Source of the DNA: an uncultured Caryophanales bacterium
GTDB taxonomy: Bacteria > Bacillota_I > Bacilli_A > RF39 > UBA660
Length of the DNA: 43,900 nt
Direction of reading: 5' to 3'
NCBI GenBank assembly: GCA_946614095.1
Contig: CAMOGG010000008.1
Span: 1 to 43,900, forward strand
The notes beneath the pieces were generated by a model, which was given only the letters and a program-made list of their open reading frames with translations, did no database searches and had not been told where the DNA came from. The translations under genes and the position numbers were made by a program. Numbering within the stretch: the stretch's first letter is position 1; each line of letters starts with the position of its first letter. Positions 10,515 through 19,276 of this stretch are shown here, one piece after another.

Positions 10515-10530
10515 AGAAGTGGTGATGAAA

Positions 10531-11391
10531 ATGAAAACATGTTTAGTCCTAGAAGGAGGTGCATTAAGAGGAATCTATACAGCGGGAGTATTAGATGAGC
10601 TACAGAAAGAAGATATTAAGATAGATGCAATAATAGGAGTATCTATGGGTTCTCTTATTGGAATAAACTATGTATCAAAACAACCAGGAAGAACAATTCG
10701 ATATATTTTAAAGTATTGTAAAGATAAGAGATTCATGGGATTATATTCCCTATTAACAACAGGAAATATTGCTAATAAAGAATTTGGCTATTATGAAATT
10801 CCAAATAAACTCGATAAGTTTGATTTTGATACTTATAAAAAATCAAATATGAAATATTATTGTACAGTTACTAATGTTGAAACTGGAAAAGCAGAATATA
10901 TTGAAATTAAAGATGCTAAGAAAGAAGTAGAATATCTAAGAGCAGGGAGTTCTATGCCAGGAGTATCCAAACTAGTAGAAATCAATCATAAAAAATATTT
11001 AGATGGAGGAATGTCAGACTCCATTCCAGTAAAGAAAGCCCAAGAATTAGGATATGATAAAATAATAGTTGTAACAACAAGACCAATAGAATATCGAAAA
11101 AGAAATTCAAAATTAAAAACTCTATCAAGAATCTATCGAAAGTATCCAAACTTTGTAAAAACAATTTCAACAAGAAATGAAAATTATAATAAGACAGTAG
11201 AAGAAATTATAAAGTTAGAAAAAGAAGAAAAAGTATTTGTAATTCGTCCTAGTAAAAAAATCCCTATTAAGAGAGTAGAAAAAAATCCTGACCGTATAAA
11301 AGAACAATATAACCTAGGCAGAGAAGATTTTCAAATGAAAAAAGAAAAATTAAAAGAATATTTACAAAAGAAAGAAGGAAAGAAAAAATGA
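10531..11391 (+). CDS. patatin-like phospholipase family protein
   Basis: The 286-residue cytosolic protein is a patatin/RssA-type serine lipase homologue that hydrolyses acyl esters with a Ser-Asp dyad. The oxyanion-hole Gly-rich loop EGGALRG is at residues 8-14. The nucleophile elbow GVSMGS carries Ser38, and the DGG motif gives Asp158. ATG 10531 is chosen because GGTGA lies five bases upstream; the upstream GTG/ATG codons overlap that site. The C-terminal 80 residues are Lys-rich and probably helical. Its stop overlaps the next start (ATGA), so it is translationally coupled to a B3/B4-domain protein. The substrate is unknown. Confidence 0.9.
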   Translation: MKTCLVLEGGALRGIYTAGVLDELQKEDIKIDAIIGVSMGSLIGINYVSKQPGRTIRYILKYCKDKRFMGLYSLLTTGNIANKEFGYYEIPNKLDKFDFDTYKKSNMKYYCTVTNVETGKAEYIEIKDAKKEVEYLRAGSSMPGVSKLVEINHKKYLDGGMSDSIPVKKAQELGYDKIIVVTTRPIEYRKRNSKLKTLSRIYRKYPNFVKTISTRNENYNKTVEEIIKLEKEEKVFVIRPSKKIPIKRVEKNPDRIKEQYNLGREDFQMKKEKLKEYLQKKEGKKK

Positions 11392-12107
11392 AAAAATTTT
11401 ATGTAGAAGATGAAGTGTTTCAAATATTACCAAACTTAAACGTAGGAGTATTAGTATTAAAAAATGTGAATGAAAATAAAAAATTAGAAGAAAAAGAAGC
11501 AAAAGAGATTAAAGATATTTTAGATACAGCAAATCAAAAAGCAAAAAGATTTTTAACAAGTGATACTATATCAGAAAATGAAGTAGTAAAAGTATGGAGA
11601 GAAGCTTATTCTTCTTTTCCAACAAAGAAAGGAGCAAGATGTTCCCTAGAAAACTTATTAAAAAGAGTATTACATGATAATCCGGTTGGAACAATTTTGC
11701 CATCAGTAGATATTACGAATGCCATATCTTTAGAATATGCCTTTCCAATTGGAGCAGAGGATTTAGATAAAATTGATGGAGATATTCGTTTAGGAATCAT
11801 GAATGGGGATGAGAAATTCTTACCAATTGGAAAAGACAAAGAAGAACCACCTCTAAAAGGAGAAATCGCTTATAGAGATGATTATGGAGCAGTATGTCGC
11901 TGTCTAAATTGGCGAGATGGAGTTCGTACAGAAATAACAGATGAAACGAGTTATGAATTTATCGCAATGGAATGCTTAGAACCAAATCGATTAGAAGAAT
12001 TAAAAGATGCTCTAGACCAACTAGAACAATTAATGTGTAAATATCTTGATGCCGAAACAGTAACAAACACAATTCTTACAAAAGAAAATAATTCAGTAGA
12101 GATTTAA
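11388..12107 (+). CDS. solo B3/B4 (PheRS beta-like) domain protein
   Basis: The 239-residue protein matches the free-standing B3/B4 domain family, which resembles the tRNA-binding/editing module of phenylalanyl-tRNA synthetase beta. Recognisable segments are WREAYSSFPTKKGARCSLENLL, PVGTILPSVDITNAISLEYAFPIGAEDLDKI and AVCRCLNWRDGVRTEIT. Stand-alone members are suspected of tRNA editing or amino-acid-related roles, but this is not settled. It overlaps the patatin gene by four bases (ATGA), an unusual pairing that suggests coupled translation rather than a known shared pathway. Confidence 0.85.
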   Translation: MKKFYVEDEVFQILPNLNVGVLVLKNVNENKKLEEKEAKEIKDILDTANQKAKRFLTSDTISENEVVKVWREAYSSFPTKKGARCSLENLLKRVLHDNPVGTILPSVDITNAISLEYAFPIGAEDLDKIDGDIRLGIMNGDEKFLPIGKDKEEPPLKGEIAYRDDYGAVCRCLNWRDGVRTEITDETSYEFIAMECLEPNRLEELKDALDQLEQLMCKYLDAETVTNTILTKENNSVEI

Positions 12108-12130: not shown

Positions 12131-12159
12131 TTGCGAAAAGAAAGACACTGTGATACGAT
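12131..12159 (+). promoter_or_regulatory. promoter of the SBP/VWA-XpaC-SBP-SPFH operon
   Basis: TTGCGA (12131-12136) and TACGAT (12154-12159) are separated by 17 bases. A 6-bp inverted repeat, AGTGTC near 12108-12113 and GACACT in the spacer at 12144-12149, brackets the -35 and could be a regulator site or weak terminator. Confidence 0.5.
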
Positions 12160-12180: not shown

Positions 12181-13788
12181 GTGAAAAAGAAAAATAATAC
12201 TGCAACAATCTTTATTATTATTGGGGTAGTTATAGGAATACATCTATTGTTCTCACTAGGAAGATCTGCAGCTGACATAGTAGGTTCTGCATTTTCTGAT
12301 AAAGAATTAAATATTCTTTCATCAAATGATAATAAAGACTTAGAAAGTAATATCAAAAAATATGCTCAAAAAGAGGGATTTAAAACAAAATTTACCTATA
12401 TGGGAGACTTAGAAATAGTAGAGGAATTAAATGCTAATTCAGGCGCATATGATGCTGTATGGATTTCAAATTCCTTATGGCTATACATGTTAAATGATTC
12501 TCATCTTACAAGTGAATCAAAAAGTATTAGTATCAGTCCAGTCGTTATGGGAATTCAAATGTCAAAAGCAAAGAGTTTAGGATTGGTAGGAAAATCAGTA
12601 ACAAATGTTGATATTTTAAATCTAATCAAAAACAAACAAATAAAATATGTTATGAGTTCTGTAACTCAAACCAATGATGGAGCAAGTTCCTATTTAGGAT
12701 TTTTAAACGCCCTAGCAGGAAGCCCAGAAGTCTTAAAAGAAGAAATGTTAGATAATCCAGAACTAATTACGAATTTAAAGGAACTATTTAAAGGAGTAGA
12801 AAGAGTATCAGGAGATCAAGATTTCCTAGAGACCATGTTTGTGAATGGTGATGACTATGAAGCAGTGATTGCGAGTGAATCTTCCTTAATTAATATCAAT
12901 AAAAAATTAAAAGATAATAATAAAGAAGAATTATATTTAATATATCCAATTGATGGAGTACCAATTAATGATTCTACATTAGCTTTTATTGATCACTATG
13001 AACAACCTAAGAAGAAGGAAAACTATTTAAAATTACAAAAGTACTTAAGAAGTAAAGAAGGTCAAAACGAGCTAAAGACATTAGGAAGAAGAACTTGGTA
13101 TGGAGGAATCTCTTCCAATGAAGATGAACAAATCTTTAATCAATACTGGGGAATTCATACAGAAAAATATTTAACGGGAACCAAATTTCCTTCAAAAAAA
13201 GTAATTACAAAAGCAATTGATTTATACATTGAACAATTAAGAAAACCATCTCATACAGTATTTTGTCTAGATTATTCAGGAAGTATGTATGGAGGTGGAC
13301 GAGAAGAATTAGTAGAAGCAATGGAATATATATTAGATAGAGAACAAGCAAAAACAGCGAATCTTCAATTCTCGAAAGTTGATAAAATTACAGTATTACC
13401 ATTTGAAACATATGTAAAACCATCCATTATAACAGAAAATGGAACCGATACTCAAAATATGATGGACCAAATTAGAGAATTAGAGCCAAGTGGTTCTACA
13501 GCACTTTATGATTGTGCTATTGAAGGGTTAAATATCTTAGAAAAAGAATCCAATGATTATACCAAAACAATCATTGCTATGACAGATGGTGAAATAAACG
13601 TAGGAAGTTATAATGATTTAAAAACAATATATAAAACATATCAATCAAAAGTACCGATATATAGTATTACATTTGGAAAGGCAAGAGAAGATCAACTAAA
13701 AGAAATTGCAAAATTAACAAATGCTAAAGTATTCAATGGAAAAAATGGACTATTAGAAGCCTTCAAAGAAGTGAGGGGGTATAGTTAA
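12181..13788 (+). CDS. membrane-anchored substrate-binding-like / von Willebrand factor A fusion protein
   Basis: The 535-residue protein has a basic N-terminus and one TM helix (about residues 8-25). A region of roughly 310 residues follows whose pattern resembles a type 2 periplasmic binding protein (ELNILSSND, then YDAVWISNSLWLYML, then GISSNEDEQIFNQYWG). A VWA domain covers about residues 355-535. The VWA metal-ion site is complete: D364-Y-S366-G-S368, Thr440 in GSTALYD and Asp469 in TDGE. This implies Mg-dependent ligand binding. GTG is the start, with GAGGAG seven bases upstream. The two ligand-binding modules should lie outside the membrane. Its stop overlaps the XpaC-like start (TAATG). 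Confidence 0.85.
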   Translation: MKKKNNTATIFIIIGVVIGIHLLFSLGRSAADIVGSAFSDKELNILSSNDNKDLESNIKKYAQKEGFKTKFTYMGDLEIVEELNANSGAYDAVWISNSLWLYMLNDSHLTSESKSISISPVVMGIQMSKAKSLGLVGKSVTNVDILNLIKNKQIKYVMSSVTQTNDGASSYLGFLNALAGSPEVLKEEMLDNPELITNLKELFKGVERVSGDQDFLETMFVNGDDYEAVIASESSLININKKLKDNNKEELYLIYPIDGVPINDSTLAFIDHYEQPKKKENYLKLQKYLRSKEGQNELKTLGRRTWYGGISSNEDEQIFNQYWGIHTEKYLTGTKFPSKKVITKAIDLYIEQLRKPSHTVFCLDYSGSMYGGGREELVEAMEYILDREQAKTANLQFSKVDKITVLPFETYVKPSIITENGTDTQNMMDQIRELEPSGSTALYDCAIEGLNILEKESNDYTKTIIAMTDGEINVGSYNDLKTIYKTYQSKVPIYSITFGKAREDQLKEIAKLTNAKVFNGKNGLLEAFKEVRGYS

Positions 13789-14387
13789 TGAAGAAGCGGT
13801 ATATCTATTCTGCTTACTTAGCATCAGCATTCTTCATTATTTTATACGTACTATTGTCCTTTCCACTATGGATTACACTATTAATCACAGCAGTTGTCTA
13901 TGTAGGTGGAATCTTCTTATTTAAAGAGAAAGACGTAAGAAAATATGATCCAAATACCATGATGCACTATTGTTACTTAATAAGTAAAATTGATAATTAT
14001 GCAAATGTAATAAAAAATAAAACAGTAAAAAAAGATATCAAAGATATTTCAGAAAAAGCTGAAAAAATAGTAGTAATGTTAGAACAAAAACCAGATAAAA
14101 TTACTCAAGTATATGATGGATTTGATTTCTACCTACCACAAACTATTAAAATATTAGATCAATATCAAATGATTGAAGAAAAAAAAGATAAATCTGAACA
14201 AGAGAAAAAGTTCGGAGAACAAATCAATACAACATTAGATTATATAGAAAAAGAAATTGATAAATTATTAGAAAATATGAACTATACAAAAATGTTAGAT
14301 ATAAATGCTAGTATAGAAATGTTTCAAAAAGCAAACAACAAGATAGAGACAAAAACAGATAAAGAGGGAAGTGAAGAACATGCTTAA
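13788..14387 (+). CDS. XpaC-like membrane protein (BCIP phosphate hydrolysis family)
   Basis: The 199-residue protein has two adjacent N-terminal TM helices (about 8-26 and 28-46). A cytosolic helical, charged domain follows, with FKEKDVRKYDP, IDNYANVIKNKTVKKDI and INTTLDYIEKEIDKLLENM. This is the layout of the XpaC family, named for 5-bromo-4-chloroindolyl phosphate hydrolysis. In Bacillus, xpaC lies beside a TelA/toxic-anion-resistance gene; no TelA gene is visible here. The start overlaps the upstream stop by one base and its end overlaps the next gene. The catalytic annotation of the family name is weak, so the role here is best read from context. Confidence 0.75.
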   Translation: MKKRYIYSAYLASAFFIILYVLLSFPLWITLLITAVVYVGGIFLFKEKDVRKYDPNTMMHYCYLISKIDNYANVIKNKTVKKDIKDISEKAEKIVVMLEQKPDKITQVYDGFDFYLPQTIKILDQYQMIEEKKDKSEQEKKFGEQINTTLDYIEKEIDKLLENMNYTKMLDINASIEMFQKANNKIETKTDKEGSEEHA

Positions 14388-15564
14388 AGAAGGAAAGCTT
14401 GAAAAAATAATTGGAATTGTTATTTTAGTAGTCGTAATTATCTTAGTAGTCATTATAAAAGGAATTGTAGATTCAAAATCAGATAAAGGATTAACAACAA
14501 TCTATGGAGCAGTAGGTGGAGGAAAAGAAGACTTTATTGCTGATGAAGAGTTTAATAAAATATTAAAAGATAAATATCGTATTAAGTTCGTAGCAGATAG
14601 TTGGGGAAATGGTAGTACAATTTCAAAACCATTAGTAAGAGAAACCGTTCATTATGGAAATACATCAGTACCAGAAAGTGAACTATCTATTACGAATGAA
14701 AGATGTTCAAAATATGATTTATTATTTACCAGTGATGAGCGTTACCTAACTTATTATCGTGGAGTACCAAAAGGGGAAGAAGCAGAACGCTATCGTGTAT
14801 TAAAAGGATCTCTAACTTTAAATACTCCAATTGTTTTCTATAGTTGGGATACCGTAGTAGATGCCTTAATAAAAGAAGGTATTGTAACAAAAGAAGGAGA
14901 TATTTACTATATTACAGATTTTAATAAATTAATTGATGATATCCTAGCAGATAAATCATGGAAAGATATTGGTCTAACAGATTTATTTGGAAATATGAAT
15001 ATAGCATCTGTTGACCCTGTATCATCCTCTCCAGGAGCAACTTACTATGGATTATTATTGACAATATTAACCAATGGAAATGAAAGTAAAGAAGCAATGG
15101 AAAAAGCATTACCAAAATTAAAACAACTATATGATAAATCTGGATATATGGGAGTAACTCCTGCAGACTTATTTGAAAAGTTTATGAAAATTGGACAAGG
15201 TACTTATCCATTAATCGTAGACTATGAAAAGAGTTTAATGGAATTCAGGAATAGAGACAAAGATGGATATAATAATGTAAAAGACCACTTAAGAATTCTT
15301 TATTCCAAACCAACTGTAACTAATTCACACTGTATCGCAACATTTACAGAAAACGGAAACAAGTTCTTAAAAGCATTTGATGATAAAGATATTCAAGAAT
15401 TAGCTTGGAAAAACTATGGATTCCGTGTAGAAGGATCTGGTGGAGTAAGTGATGTATCTGTAGTAGATATGCCAGGTATTCCATCAAAAATAACCAGTGG
15501 AGCCAAAGGTTTAGGAATGGATACCTATAATAGATTAATAGAATATTTAGAAAAAGGAGTGTAA
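14380..15564 (+). CDS. membrane-anchored extracellular substrate-binding-protein-like protein
   Basis: The protein of about 394 residues has one N-terminal TM helix (about residues 10-28) and a long extracytoplasmic domain of type 2 binding-protein character. It shows TTIYGAVGGGKEDFI at the start of the domain, RCSKYDLLFTSDERYLTYYRG, then LNTPIVFYSWDTVVDALI and VDPVSSSPGATYYGLLL. No lipobox is present, so it is helix-anchored rather than a lipoprotein. No transporter permease or ATPase is nearby, arguing for sensing rather than uptake. ATG 14380 overlaps the XpaC stop and is preferred; an in-frame GTG at 14371 sits too close to GAGGGA. Three bases separate its stop from the SPFH gene. Confidence 0.75.
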   Translation: MLKEGKLEKIIGIVILVVVIILVVIIKGIVDSKSDKGLTTIYGAVGGGKEDFIADEEFNKILKDKYRIKFVADSWGNGSTISKPLVRETVHYGNTSVPESELSITNERCSKYDLLFTSDERYLTYYRGVPKGEEAERYRVLKGSLTLNTPIVFYSWDTVVDALIKEGIVTKEGDIYYITDFNKLIDDILADKSWKDIGLTDLFGNMNIASVDPVSSSPGATYYGLLLTILTNGNESKEAMEKALPKLKQLYDKSGYMGVTPADLFEKFMKIGQGTYPLIVDYEKSLMEFRNRDKDGYNNVKDHLRILYSKPTVTNSHCIATFTENGNKFLKAFDDKDIQELAWKNYGFRVEGSGGVSDVSVVDMPGIPSKITSGAKGLGMDTYNRLIEYLEKGV

Positions 15565-15567
15565 GAA

Positions 15568-16560
15568 ATGGGATTTATTAAAGCTATTCAAACTGCTACT
15601 ACAGGACAGTTAGCAGATTCATACCGTGAGGTCATTAAATTTGAAAATAAGGATAAAAATTTACTAATAAAAAAAGTAACAACACCAAATGGAGTTATTA
15701 CTAACGAATCAAGATTATTTGTAGAACCAGGTCAATGTGCTATTTATACAGATAATGGAGCAATCAAAGATATTATTACAGAGCCAGGAATGTATTTTAT
15801 GGATACATCCGCTCCATCATTATTTCAAGTAAATATCTTTGAAGGAATAGGATCAACGTTTTTAGAGTCAATGAAGCGTATTGCTTATGAGGGACAAACA
15901 ATCACAACTCAATCAGTATACTTCATCTCTCTAGCGGAGTTAACCAATATACCATATGAAACAAAAACAAACATCCTATATAAAGATCCAGAATGGGGTC
16001 CAATGGATATTAAATTATCAGGTTCTTATGGAATTAAAGTAACGAATCCAATGAATTTACTAACAAATGTAAATAGTAATGCAGATGAATATTATTTTGA
16101 AGATTTAGGTACTCAAATAGATGATTATATCAATAAAGAGTTAATGGAAAAAATGAATGGATTCAACGTTTCATTTGATTCTATCGCAAGTAAAATGGCT
16201 GATGCTTCAGAAGCAATCTTAGAAGAAATTAATAAAGATACAGAAAGCTTAGGAATTTCTTTAACAAGAGTCGTGATTGGAGAAATCACAGTACCAGAAG
16301 AAATTAAGAAAGCAATGTACGAAAGAACTGGTATCAAGATGAAAGCGACAAGTGTTGACTCTGAACAAGCAGATATCTATACAAAACTAAATACTGCCGA
16401 AGCAATGAAAGATATGGCAAACAATCAAGGAAATGCAGGAACTACCATTATGGGTATGAATATGGGTAACACACTAGCTGGAATGGTTAATAATAATATC
16501 AATCAAGCTCAAGCAGAAAAACCAAATGAAGAACCAGTACAAAATGAAACCAATGAATAA
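15568..16560 (+). CDS. SPFH domain protein, YdjI-like
   Basis: The 330-residue cytosolic protein has an SPFH/band 7-type core typical of the YdjI family. Key segments are ESRLFVEPGQCAIYTDNGAIKDIITEPGMYFMDTSAPSLFQ (given in part), LSGSYGIKVTNPMNLL and VVIGEITVPEEIKKAMYERTGIKMKA. A Met/Asn/Gly- and Gln-rich tail follows, where some relatives carry a zinc ribbon; no ribbon is present here. In Bacillus, ydjI belongs to the ydjFGHI cluster with a PspA-like protein, a link to membrane stress. It is last in the operon, followed by a terminator, and may be a scaffold for the membrane proteins encoded ahead of it (inference). Confidence 0.85.
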   Translation: MGFIKAIQTATTGQLADSYREVIKFENKDKNLLIKKVTTPNGVITNESRLFVEPGQCAIYTDNGAIKDIITEPGMYFMDTSAPSLFQVNIFEGIGSTFLESMKRIAYEGQTITTQSVYFISLAELTNIPYETKTNILYKDPEWGPMDIKLSGSYGIKVTNPMNLLTNVNSNADEYYFEDLGTQIDDYINKELMEKMNGFNVSFDSIASKMADASEAILEEINKDTESLGISLTRVVIGEITVPEEIKKAMYERTGIKMKATSVDSEQADIYTKLNTAEAMKDMANNQGNAGTTIMGMNMGNTLAGMVNNNINQAQAEKPNEEPVQNETNE

Positions 16561-16580
16561 AAGACGTTAAGTCTTTTTTC
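16559..16580 (+). terminator. intrinsic terminator of the 12181-16560 operon
   Basis: AAAGAC / GTCTTT stem with a short GTTAA loop and a T-run directly after the SPFH stop codon. Confidence 0.75.
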
Positions 16581-16628
16581 ATTGCAAGAAACATAATGAT
16601 TTGTGCTATACTTATAATAGGTGATACC

Positions 16629-17531
16629 ATGAATGAGAATATAATTTTAGAAAGAGAAAAACCATATATTGATAAAATCTGTAATGAATATCAATATGAT
16701 AGTAATATCAAACACTTATTATATTTAATGATACCGGCATTTATTATAAAATATGGTACAAGTAAAGAAAAATTAGTATTAAATACATTTCGTGAAATAA
16801 AAATAATAAGTAGTAATAAAAAAAGTAAAATGGTAAGAGCATACTTCTCTAGTGTACCAAAAAAACAAGGAGCAGATTATATTACTAGAAAGTATATGGT
16901 TATCTATAATTATCAACAAATAGGTTTAATTGATTTATTAGATAACTTAGTACATGAATTTAATCATGCAATTAATTCCTATATTAGTGAGATTAAAGTA
17001 ACAAGTAGTTATGTTTATCTAAGAACAGGTCTAACTTACAAAGTATATCATAAAGATACATTAGACTTTATAAAAAAAGATAATTCTTATATATTAGAAG
17101 AAATTATTAATACAAAACAAACATCAGATATTATTAATATTATGAAAAATTTTCATCCTACGGATTCTTCCTTACAAAATACAATATATGCAATTAACGC
17201 AGAGACAAATCATCAATATAGTTCAGACTCTTATTACCTACAAAGCTATATTTGTAAAGAAATATTAAATAATAGAACCTTTATTTCTACCTTAGAGAAT
17301 TTAAGAATTAATGGAGAGATATATGATATTAAAAACTGGTTTGATAATATTATGGGAAAAAAAGGAAAATATAATGAATTAGTTGATAAATTAAAAGAAG
17401 TATATGATTTAGAAGTAGAATATGTTTCAAAGAAAATATTTAAGTCTATTACTAGAAATAAAATAAGAGATACTTCAAGAGAAATCATGCGCCTGATAGA
17501 ACAATTTAATCAAAATGTTAATTTTCGATAA
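16629..17531 (+). CDS. putative HExxH-motif protein, unknown
   Basis: The 300-residue predicted cytosolic protein has no signal peptide and no family I recognise. Its most informative motif is HEFNH at residues 109-113, the HExxH zinc-binding and catalytic signature of gluzincin-type metallopeptidases, within LVHEFNHAINSYI. A downstream EEIIN (about 157-161) is a candidate third ligand. The rest is rich in Asn, Lys and Ile. ATG 16629 is chosen because GGTGAT lies five bases upstream; the longer frame lacks a ribosome-binding site. The gene stands between the SPFH operon and the ClpX-like gene, each separated by a terminator-like element. Proteolytic activity is inferred from the motif alone. 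Confidence 0.7.
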   Translation: MNENIILEREKPYIDKICNEYQYDSNIKHLLYLMIPAFIIKYGTSKEKLVLNTFREIKIISSNKKSKMVRAYFSSVPKKQGADYITRKYMVIYNYQQIGLIDLLDNLVHEFNHAINSYISEIKVTSSYVYLRTGLTYKVYHKDTLDFIKKDNSYILEEIINTKQTSDIINIMKNFHPTDSSLQNTIYAINAETNHQYSSDSYYLQSYICKEILNNRTFISTLENLRINGEIYDIKNWFDNIMGKKGKYNELVDKLKEVYDLEVEYVSKKIFKSITRNKIRDTSREIMRLIEQFNQNVNFR

Positions 17532-17577
17532 AGAAGAAATTCTATCAAAAGGTAGTTGACGGAATCTCTTTTTTTTT
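17532..17577 (+). terminator. imperfect terminator overlapping a promoter
   Basis: An interrupted stem between AGAAGAAATTC and GAATCTCT is followed by a T-run of about ten. The stem has bulges, so the call is moderate. The region also contains the next gene's -35 box. Confidence 0.4.
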
Positions 17578-17584
17578 ATATATT
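17556..17584 (+). promoter_or_regulatory. promoter of ClpX-like gene
   Basis: TTGACG (17556-17561) lies 17 bases from TATATT (17579-17584). The -35 falls inside the 3' arm of the upstream terminator-like structure. Confidence 0.5.
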
Positions 17585-17608: not shown

Positions 17609-19276
17609 ATGAGCAATAAATATGTCGCAACAATTATGGATCGCCATTACATTGGAGAAAATGCCTTTGTATTTAATTGTAATCATGCTGTAATAGGGGA
17701 CTTTGATGAAGAAACAGGAATATTCAAAGATCGTAATGGAAATGAATATGCACCAATGACAAGCCCAAAATTAATGGAAAGTGAAATACCATATGCTTTT
17801 TCAAATATTATTCGTCTAGACGATATCCAAGAAGAAATAGGTGGAGGATTATCTCTTACAGATTCCATTAGTGAATATGAATATGAATGTAGGAAAAGAA
17901 TATTTTTTGTAAGAAAGACAAAAGAAGATAATATTTTCTGTATTCATTTTAATATGGATGAAATTGAAGGACAAGTAAAAGCAGCACAAGTAGATGAAGA
18001 AGAGGAAATGGACGATGAAGATGGAATTGATCCAGCTTTAAAACAACTAATTATAGATGTTATTAATGGAAAGTATTCAATAAATGAATTAAAACAGATA
18101 AGAGACCAATTGAAAGATAGTTATGATGATTTTGAATGGGCCATTGATACAGTTGAATTACAAATAGAAGCATCAGAAAATGGAACATCATTAATTGATT
18201 TACCACCAGATCCAGAAGGCTTAGAAGAATATGAAGAAAAAAGTAGTACCAAAGATAGAACTTCTGAAATTTTTGATGAAATCTTTCAAGAAGAAAGAAT
18301 TGATATAGAAAAGTTATTTCACCAAGTAACTCAAACCTTAATTGCTCAAGATGAACCAGCAAGACGAGTAATTGCAGAAATTGCTAGAAAAGAATTAGAT
18401 GAAAGAAAGAAAAAAGAAGGAATTCTTTTAACGGGATCAACAGGTGTTGGTAAAACAGAATTAATGAGATTAATTGCCAAGTATTTAAATAAACCATTCT
18501 TTAAAGTAGATTCTACTCAATTAACAACCCCAGGATATACCGGAAAAGACATAGAAGAAGTATTATGGGATTTATATATAGCTTGTGGTAGAGATAAAAG
18601 CAAAGTAGAAAATGCTATTATTTTCTTTGACGAAATCGATAAAAAAGGTTCTAGTAGAAAAGATGATCATAGTGGACAAGGAGTATTAAATCTACTATTA
18701 CCGTTTATTGAAGGAGCAACTTATGATGCATGTGAAGATATGAGAAATGCCAAAGAAAAAGTAAAAATAGATACCAGTAACATGATTGTCATTTTAGGAG
18801 GAGCATACACTGATGTTTATAAAAATTTAATAGAAAAAAATATCGGTTTTAATAACCAAGTATCATCAAAACCAATTTATAGACAAGCTACAACCAAAGA
18901 CTTTATCGAAAAAGGAATGATGACCGATGAATTCATGGGAAGAGTAACCGTTATTAAATTAAATGATTTAGATGTAGATGCTATTAAAAGAGTAATGTTA
19001 GAATCAGATGAATCAGCTATGAAAGTACAGGAAGCAATCTTTAAAAAATTAGGAGTAAAACTAACCTTTACTGATTCTTATACAACAGAGATTGCAAAGA
19101 ATGCTTATGAAAAAAATACAGGAGCAAGAGGCTTAAATGGAATTATTGATGAAACTACATGGAAAGCTTTTGATGAAGTATATACCCATCACGGAGCTTA
19201 CGAGGAAGTAATTTTAGATGATGAAACAGTGAAAGATCCAAGTAGTTTTCAATTAGTTAAAAAGAAAGGACATTAA
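17609..19276 (+). CDS. ClpX-like AAA+ unfoldase with atypical N-terminal domain
   Basis: The 555-residue ATPase's last 320 residues follow ClpX: Walker A GSTGVGKT (276-283), pore-loop-like PGYTGKD, Walker B IIFFDEID with D341-E342, and sensor-2 GARGL with R507. An IGF tripeptide at 412-414 sits where ClpX carries the IGF loop that docks on ClpP. The ClpX zinc-binding domain is absent. Residues 1-220 instead form a different domain (RDRNGNEYAPMTSPK-like segments, an acidic EEEEMDDED stretch near 133) not recognised here. ClpX-type proteins unfold substrates for ClpP or act as remodelling factors. The N-terminal swap suggests a different substrate or adaptor set. It is monocistronic with its own promoter, and is not the housekeeping clpX. 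Confidence 0.85.
   Translation: MSNKYVATIMDRHYIGENAFVFNCNHAVIGDFDEETGIFKDRNGNEYAPMTSPKLMESEIPYAFSNIIRLDDIQEEIGGGLSLTDSISEYEYECRKRIFFVRKTKEDNIFCIHFNMDEIEGQVKAAQVDEEEEMDDEDGIDPALKQLIIDVINGKYSINELKQIRDQLKDSYDDFEWAIDTVELQIEASENGTSLIDLPPDPEGLEEYEEKSSTKDRTSEIFDEIFQEERIDIEKLFHQVTQTLIAQDEPARRVIAEIARKELDERKKKEGILLTGSTGVGKTELMRLIAKYLNKPFFKVDSTQLTTPGYTGKDIEEVLWDLYIACGRDKSKVENAIIFFDEIDKKGSSRKDDHSGQGVLNLLLPFIEGATYDACEDMRNAKEKVKIDTSNMIVILGGAYTDVYKNLIEKNIGFNNQVSSKPIYRQATTKDFIEKGMMTDEFMGRVTVIKLNDLDVDAIKRVMLESDESAMKVQEAIFKKLGVKLTFTDSYTTEIAKNAYEKNTGARGLNGIIDETTWKAFDEVYTHHGAYEEVILDDETVKDPSSFQLVKKKGH

What the first reader, a model, noticed from the sequence alone, without database searches (positions are those of the whole stretch)
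12181..16560. Undescribed envelope operon: binding-protein/VWA fusion, XpaC, anchored binding protein and SPFH protein
Four genes overlapping or within three bases encode two TM-anchored proteins with extracellular solute-binding-like domains but no permease or ABC ATPase. One of them is fused to a VWA domain with an intact metal site. An XpaC-like membrane protein and a YdjI-like SPFH scaffold complete the operon. VWA and XpaC families also occur in tellurite/toxic-anion (Ter/TelA) and envelope-stress loci, yet TelA and Ter genes are absent. The layout suggests a sensor or assembly complex in the membrane that detects a ligand or a phage/peptide attack rather than importing it. The next two genes (HExxH protein, ClpX-like unfoldase) could supply proteolytic output.
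Basis: partly seen in the sequence, partly recalled or inferred. Interest (0 to 1): 0.75.

Follow-up and report, generated by a model that had tools for sequence, protein, structure and literature searches.

The report
TelA-type envelope operon with SPFH swap
Four linked genes in an uncultured gut bacterium look like a cell-surface sensing complex that is widespread in Bacilli and Clostridia, but here the usual inner partner (the tellurite/antibiotic-tolerance protein TelA) is replaced by an unrelated membrane-scaffold protein (SPFH), which suggests the two do the same job.

Summary
In detail: 12181-16560 encodes, head to tail, an N-terminally anchored solute-binding/VWA fusion with an intact MIDAS, an XpaC-family membrane protein, a second anchored type II periplasmic-binding-fold protein, and an SPFH protein. 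It has its own putative promoter and ends at a hairpin-T run, so the next two genes (HExxH, ClpX-like) are probably not part of it. It is not an orphan operon. The first three genes recur in about 80 Bacilli/Clostridia loci with no recurrent permease or ABC ATPase. In 68 loci the fourth gene is TelA, usually followed by a CbxX-like AAA+ ATPase. In 9 loci, plus this one, it is SPFH, never both, and SPFH-type genomes lack canonical TelA and the CbxX partner. XpaC tracks the swap: SPFH-type XpaC is one clade (100/99), while a single clade for the sensor-VWA gene is rejected (p-AU 3e-46). The operon SPFH is a zinc-ribbon-less relative of a YdjI-like protein that sits elsewhere in the genome in a ydjGHI-like locus. 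Best reading: an envelope-surveillance complex in which XpaC couples extracellular binding/VWA domains to a cytoplasmic scaffold, TelA or SPFH. Ligand and output are unknown. New variant of the known XpaC-TelA module.

The parts
12131..12159 (+). putative operon promoter: TTGCGA, 17 bp, TACGAT with extended -10 TG
   Evidence: the same TTGAA-N17-TGATACGAT arrangement stands before the operon in L052 and L054 (read by eye)
12181..13788 (+). SBP-VWA: N-terminal TM anchor, type II binding-protein domain (~40-340), VWA domain (~357-532) with intact MIDAS
   Evidence: (pLDDT 90)
13788..14387 (+). XpaC family (PF10112): two-TM hairpin and cytoplasmic helical part
14371..15564 (+). SBP2: TM-anchored type II periplasmic-binding-fold protein, no lipobox (start may be ATG 14380)
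15568..16560 (+). SPFH protein (PF13421, YdjI type) without N-terminal TM and without the C-terminal zinc ribbon; occupies the TelA slot
16559..16579 (+). terminator-like hairpin (AAAAGAC-GTTAA-GTCTTTT, T run) at the end of the SPFH gene
   Evidence: similar hairpins in L053, L054, L055

Best explanation
The operon encodes a membrane-spanning envelope-surveillance complex. Two anchored extracellular proteins, a binding-protein/MIDAS-VWA fusion and a second binding-fold protein, perceive a ligand or envelope state. XpaC, a two-TM hairpin with a cytoplasmic helical part, couples them to a cytoplasmic oligomeric scaffold at the inner membrane face. In most lineages that scaffold is TelA, usually with a CbxX-like AAA+ ATPase; in this lineage a YdjI-type SPFH protein without the zinc ribbon has taken TelA's place. 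Shown: gene content, conservation, the exclusive TelA/SPFH alternative, XpaC splitting with the partner, and a different history of the sensor-VWA gene. Inferred: the topology, physical docking of XpaC on TelA/SPFH, sensing, and a protective output at the membrane.
For: Genus: 20 of 36 genomes carry SBP2; 16 have TelA in the next slot, 4 (window included) have SPFH, none both. 80 wider loci: XpaC 77, SBP-VWA 76, TelA 68, CbxX 51, SPFH 9; next commonest neighbour family in 12. SPFH-type genomes: no canonical TelA and no intact CbxX of this type. XpaC identity at matched SBP2 identity (58-65%): 33% TelA-TelA, 23% cross, 44% SPFH-SPFH. XpaC: SPFH types one clade 100/99; SBP-VWA: single clade rejected, p-AU 3.4e-46, also for each domain alone. 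Within TelA operons the strongest partial distance correlation is XpaC-TelA (0.43) although SBP2 lies between them; XpaC-SBP2 is 0.00. MIDAS invariant. Literature: YdjI has no TM and needs the membrane proteins YdjG/YdjH to reach the membrane (PMC8581546); xpaC-yaaN and pspA-ydjGHI are both in the B. subtilis sigma-W regulon (PMC3498285); an lmo1967 (TelA) disruptant is 4-fold more nisin-susceptible (reported in PMC12791056); TelA is listed as a sub-membrane structural Ter component (PMC7824862).
Against: No experiment; ligand unknown. The promoter looks like a housekeeping type rather than an envelope-stress (sigma-W) type, so stress induction is unsupported. The swap is correlative: SPFH could do a job different from TelA's, with TelA simply lost. 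Genomes with SPFH are incomplete MAGs; G059 holds one distant TelA-family protein elsewhere (68 bits). Two genomes keep SBP-VWA+SBP2 apart from XpaC-SBP2-TelA-CbxX. Tree conflict could in part come from recombination or hidden paralogy.
Confidence: 0.6

Rival explanations
1. The two binding-fold proteins serve as (co)receptors of an ABC importer whose permease and ATPase are encoded elsewhere.
For: Both have the type II periplasmic-binding fold; the best structural neighbours are ABC solute receptors such as FutA, AfuA and sulfate-binding proteins.
Against: No permease or ABC ATPase family recurs near 80 loci. Both carry TM anchors instead of a lipobox, one is fused to a VWA domain, and they are linked to XpaC plus TelA/SPFH.
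Confidence: 0.08
2. It is an envelope or cell-wall assembly (structural) complex, with VWA mediating surface adhesion or matrix contact and TelA/SPFH organising membrane domains; no sensing is involved.
For: MIDAS VWA domains often mediate adhesion (general knowledge); the SPFH/TelA partners are scaffold types; housekeeping-like promoter.
Against: Two binding-fold domains with strongly conserved residues (well over 100 invariant columns in SBP2) fit ligand recognition better than pure scaffolding.
Confidence: 0.22
3. It is an anti-phage or bacteriocin-defence system that uses the downstream HExxH protein and ClpX-like unfoldase as effectors.
For: The genes are adjacent in this window; TelA in Ter systems is proposed to block phage or xenobiotic entry (PMC7824862).
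Against: No relevant PADLOC match to the four proteins; the two downstream genes do not recur beside the operon; a terminator-like hairpin intervenes.
Confidence: 0.07

Closest known systems
XpaC-TelA (xpaC-yaaN) pair of Bacillus and Listeria
   Same: XpaC family gene (PF10112) in a short operon; TelA is the partner in 68 of 80 related loci
   Different: here TelA is absent and replaced by SPFH; two anchored binding-fold proteins, one with VWA, are added; the promoter is not sigma-W like
PspA-YdjG-YdjH-YdjI of Bacillus subtilis
   Same: YdjI-type SPFH (PF13421) without its own TM, encoded with membrane proteins that could anchor it (PMC8581546)
   Different: no PspA, YdjG or YdjH in this operon; no PspA over cut-off in the genome; no C-terminal zinc ribbon; the genome has a separate YdjGHI-like locus (L132)
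Ter stress-response system (TerC/TerD/TerF-VWA/TelA)
   Same: relatives of this operon combine VWA and TelA with membrane components
   Different: no TerD in the genome or in six relatives; the VWA is predicted extracellular and fused to a binding domain, unlike TerF (from memory)
ABC-transporter solute receptors (FutA/FbpA, AfuA, sulfate-binding)
   Same: type II periplasmic-binding fold
   Different: TM-anchored, one VWA-fused, no linked permease or ATPase

Membership tests
XpaC-TelA module | XpaC/PF10112 protein | tested here: met
   8.1e-12, above gathering
XpaC-TelA module | adjacent TelA (PF05816) | tested here: not met
   no TelA in the window genes or the held genome; met in 16 congeneric genomes
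XpaC-TelA module | sigma-W type regulation | tested here: inconclusive
   a TTGCGA-17-TGaTACGAT element precedes the operon; by eye it looks housekeeping-like; transcription not measured
PspA-YdjGHI system | SPFH of PF13421 type without TM | tested here: met
   1.9e-26; no TM segment
PspA-YdjGHI system | C-terminal zinc-finger motif of YdjI | tested here: not met
   absent in all 9 operon SPFH rows of the tree, present in 16 of 18 chromosomal copies
PspA-YdjGHI system | linked PspA, YdjG, YdjH | tested here: not met
   neighbours are XpaC and binding proteins; no PspA over cut-off in the genome
ABC solute-binding receptor | linked permease and ATPase | tested here: not met
   no such recurrent family within 7.5 kb of 80 loci
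ABC solute-binding receptor | type II periplasmic-binding fold | tested here: met
   VIA Z 16-17.6 for SBP2; Foldseek for SBP-VWA
Ter system | TerD-family protein | tested here: not met
   0 of 7 genomes, control positive in B. subtilis; MAGs incomplete
MIDAS VWA domain | DxSxS...T...D metal site | tested here: met
   D364, S366, S368, T440, D469 invariant in 54 sequences

The most novel reading that the evidence does not exclude
TelA and SPFH proteins are functionally interchangeable membrane scaffolds on one sensor chassis: TelA, whose biochemical role is unknown, would work as an SPFH/prohibitin-like oligomer recruited by XpaC in response to extracellular ligand or MIDAS engagement.
Probability: 0.35. 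Interest if true: 0.75.

Novelty: new variant of a known kind. Interest (0 to 1): 0.55.

Why it matters
TelA is widespread and linked to tolerance of tellurite, nisin and other envelope stresses, but no mechanism is known. A natural swap of TelA for an SPFH scaffold behind the same extracellular sensors, with XpaC changing in step, gives a direct and testable idea of what TelA does and names XpaC as its membrane adaptor. It also points to a large family of extracellular binding/VWA proteins in gut Firmicutes that domain annotation reads as unrelated 'solute-binding', 'VWA' and 'phosphate hydrolysis' proteins.

Tried and rejected
Orphan operon: rejected, the core recurs widely. HExxH/ClpX-like output: rejected; one distant HExxH relative lies 4.6 kb beyond a TelA operon in L122. 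SPFH as a recent copy of the genome's own YdjI-like protein: it is about 30% identical to it and forms its own clade. A single TelA-to-SPFH replacement event shared by the whole operon: not consistent with the sensor-VWA tree. A broken CbxX-like fragment in G059 as relic of a TelA operon: no TelA, XpaC or sensor genes beside it on its 3.2-kb contig. Upstream k-mer search over 73 loci gave no clear shared motif. Sequence search of solved structures: nothing for SPFH or SBP2, nothing meaningful for XpaC. Literature search found no paper describing the VWA/XpaC/SBP/TelA-or-SPFH operon; the key 2012 Ter review (10.1039/c2mb25239b) is not held. Prevalence samples: 4 of 296 genomes of the class and 3 of 392 of the phylum, so patchy; all these hits are in the window's own family.

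Full report
What is there. Four genes on the + strand, 12181-16560, overlap or lie 3 bp apart. Gene 1 (535 aa) has one N-terminal TM segment, a binding-protein domain (SBP_bac_11) and a VWA domain, both above Pfam gathering; an AlphaFold2 model from 54 homologues has pLDDT 90 and matches AfuA/FbpA-type receptors and, with a smaller part, VWA-containing structures. The MIDAS residues D364, S366, S368, T440, D469 are invariant in 54 sequences. Gene 2 (199 aa) is XpaC (PF10112) with a two-TM hairpin. Gene 3 (397 aa, 'SBP2') has no Pfam family; its model (pLDDT 69) is a type II periplasmic-binding fold, Z 17.6 to FutA1 over 278 residues, behind one TM anchor without a lipobox. The two binding domains are weakly alike to each other (hhalign probability 72%; joined in clustering). 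Gene 4 (330 aa) is SPFH, PF13421, with no TM. By the positive-inside rule (my inference) the binding and VWA domains are extracellular and most of XpaC and all of SPFH cytoplasmic.

Boundaries. A TTGCGA-17-TGATACGAT element at 12131-12159 precedes gene 1, and the same arrangement stands before the operon in L052 and L054. The consensus scan of the region found no excess of promoter-like sites overall, so this rests on conservation of place and form. A hairpin with a T run begins at the SPFH stop codon (16559-16579); L053, L054 and L055 have a comparable one. The HExxH and ClpX-like genes follow this and do not recur beside the operon in relatives, so I leave them out.

The wider family. In the window's genus 20 of 36 genomes hold SBP2. 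In 16 the next gene is TelA (PF05816), in most followed by a CbxX-like AAA+ ATPase. In four, the window's included, it is SPFH; none has both, and no TelA is found anywhere in those four (they are 58-77% complete). A scan of 84,980 species genomes gave 162 SBP2 loci, of which the best 80 were kept, nearly all labelled as Bacilli or Clostridia MAGs. Of these, 77 have XpaC, 76 SBP-VWA, 68 TelA, 51 CbxX and 9 SPFH; the next most frequent neighbour family (pyruvate:ferredoxin oxidoreductase-sized, in close relatives) occurs in only 12, and no permease or ABC ATPase recurs. The six further distinct SPFH-type genomes also lack canonical TelA (one distant 68-bit relative in G059) and an intact CbxX of this type. 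Each of them has, besides the operon SPFH, a longer SPFH elsewhere.

Origin of the SPFH gene. Chromosomal SPFH copies of these genomes are 368-417 aa, 16 of 18 with a double C-terminal zinc ribbon; in the window's genome the copy lies next to a TPM-domain membrane protein and zinc-ribbon proteins, a YdjGHI-like locus (L132), without PspA over cut-off in the genome. The nine operon SPFHs in the tree are a separate, fully supported clade without zinc ribbon.

XpaC follows the partner, the sensor does not. At SBP2 identity of 58-65%, XpaC identity is 33% between TelA-type operons, 23% across types and 44% between SPFH types, and the cross-type loss runs through TM and cytoplasmic parts. In careful trees SPFH-type XpaC is one clade (100/99), SBP2 is compatible with one clade (49/26, not shown), but a single clade for SBP-VWA is rejected (p-AU 3.4e-46), also for its binding domain (1.8e-4) and VWA domain (3.5e-5) separately. 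So the XpaC...SPFH part was inherited as a unit and combined with at least two sensor-VWA lineages. Within 47 complete TelA-type operons, the strongest partial correlation of distances is XpaC-TelA (0.43, subsample sd 0.07), although SBP2 lies between the two genes; XpaC-SBP2 and XpaC-SBPVWA are near zero. This is what one expects if XpaC docks on the fourth protein; it is correlative.

Mechanism. YdjI of B. subtilis has no TM and reaches the membrane only with the membrane proteins YdjG and YdjH (PMC8581546). xpaC-yaaN and pspA-ydjGHI are both in the sigma-W regulon (PMC3498285). A disruptant of the Listeria TelA gene lmo1967, which follows an XpaC gene, is more susceptible to nisin (reported in PMC12791056). 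A review places TelA among sub-membrane structural components of Ter systems (PMC7824862). A cited 2007 paper relates TelA to the major vault protein (reference title only). I therefore propose that XpaC is the membrane adaptor for a cytoplasmic scaffold, TelA or SPFH, under control of extracellular binding/VWA domains. Steps shown: gene content, exclusivity, co-inheritance. Steps inferred: topology, docking, sensing, protective output.

Novelty. XpaC-TelA operons are known. I found no paper describing the four- or five-gene operon or the SPFH replacement, but the most relevant review (Anantharaman 2012) could not be read, and it may well mention VWA, TelA and XpaC together. I rate it a new variant of a known kind.

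Noticed in passing
L056/L057 and L087/L072 (two loci each of genomes G063 and G064): Split arrangement: SBP-VWA with an SBP2 at one place, XpaC-SBP2-TelA-CbxX at another, so the sensor-VWA may act in trans.
   Followed up: partly
window 16596-17531: HExxH (HEFNH) protein without a Pfam family; a 248-bit relative lies in L122 18622-19551, 4.6 kb beyond a TelA operon.
   Followed up: no
window 17609-19276: ClpX-like AAA+ protein (555 aa) with a long non-ClpX N-terminal region, below the ClpX cut-off, with a promoter-like element of its own at 17556-17584.
   Followed up: no
L132:5608-9333 (G000 contig 43): YdjGHI-like locus (SPFH with zinc ribbon, TPM-domain protein, zinc-ribbon proteins) in genomes where no PspA passes the family cut-off.
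   Followed up: partly
window 10519-12107: Patatin-like phospholipase with DUF6363 followed by a B3/4-domain protein directly upstream of the operon; the pair is kept in L026/L053 but not in L024.
   Followed up: no
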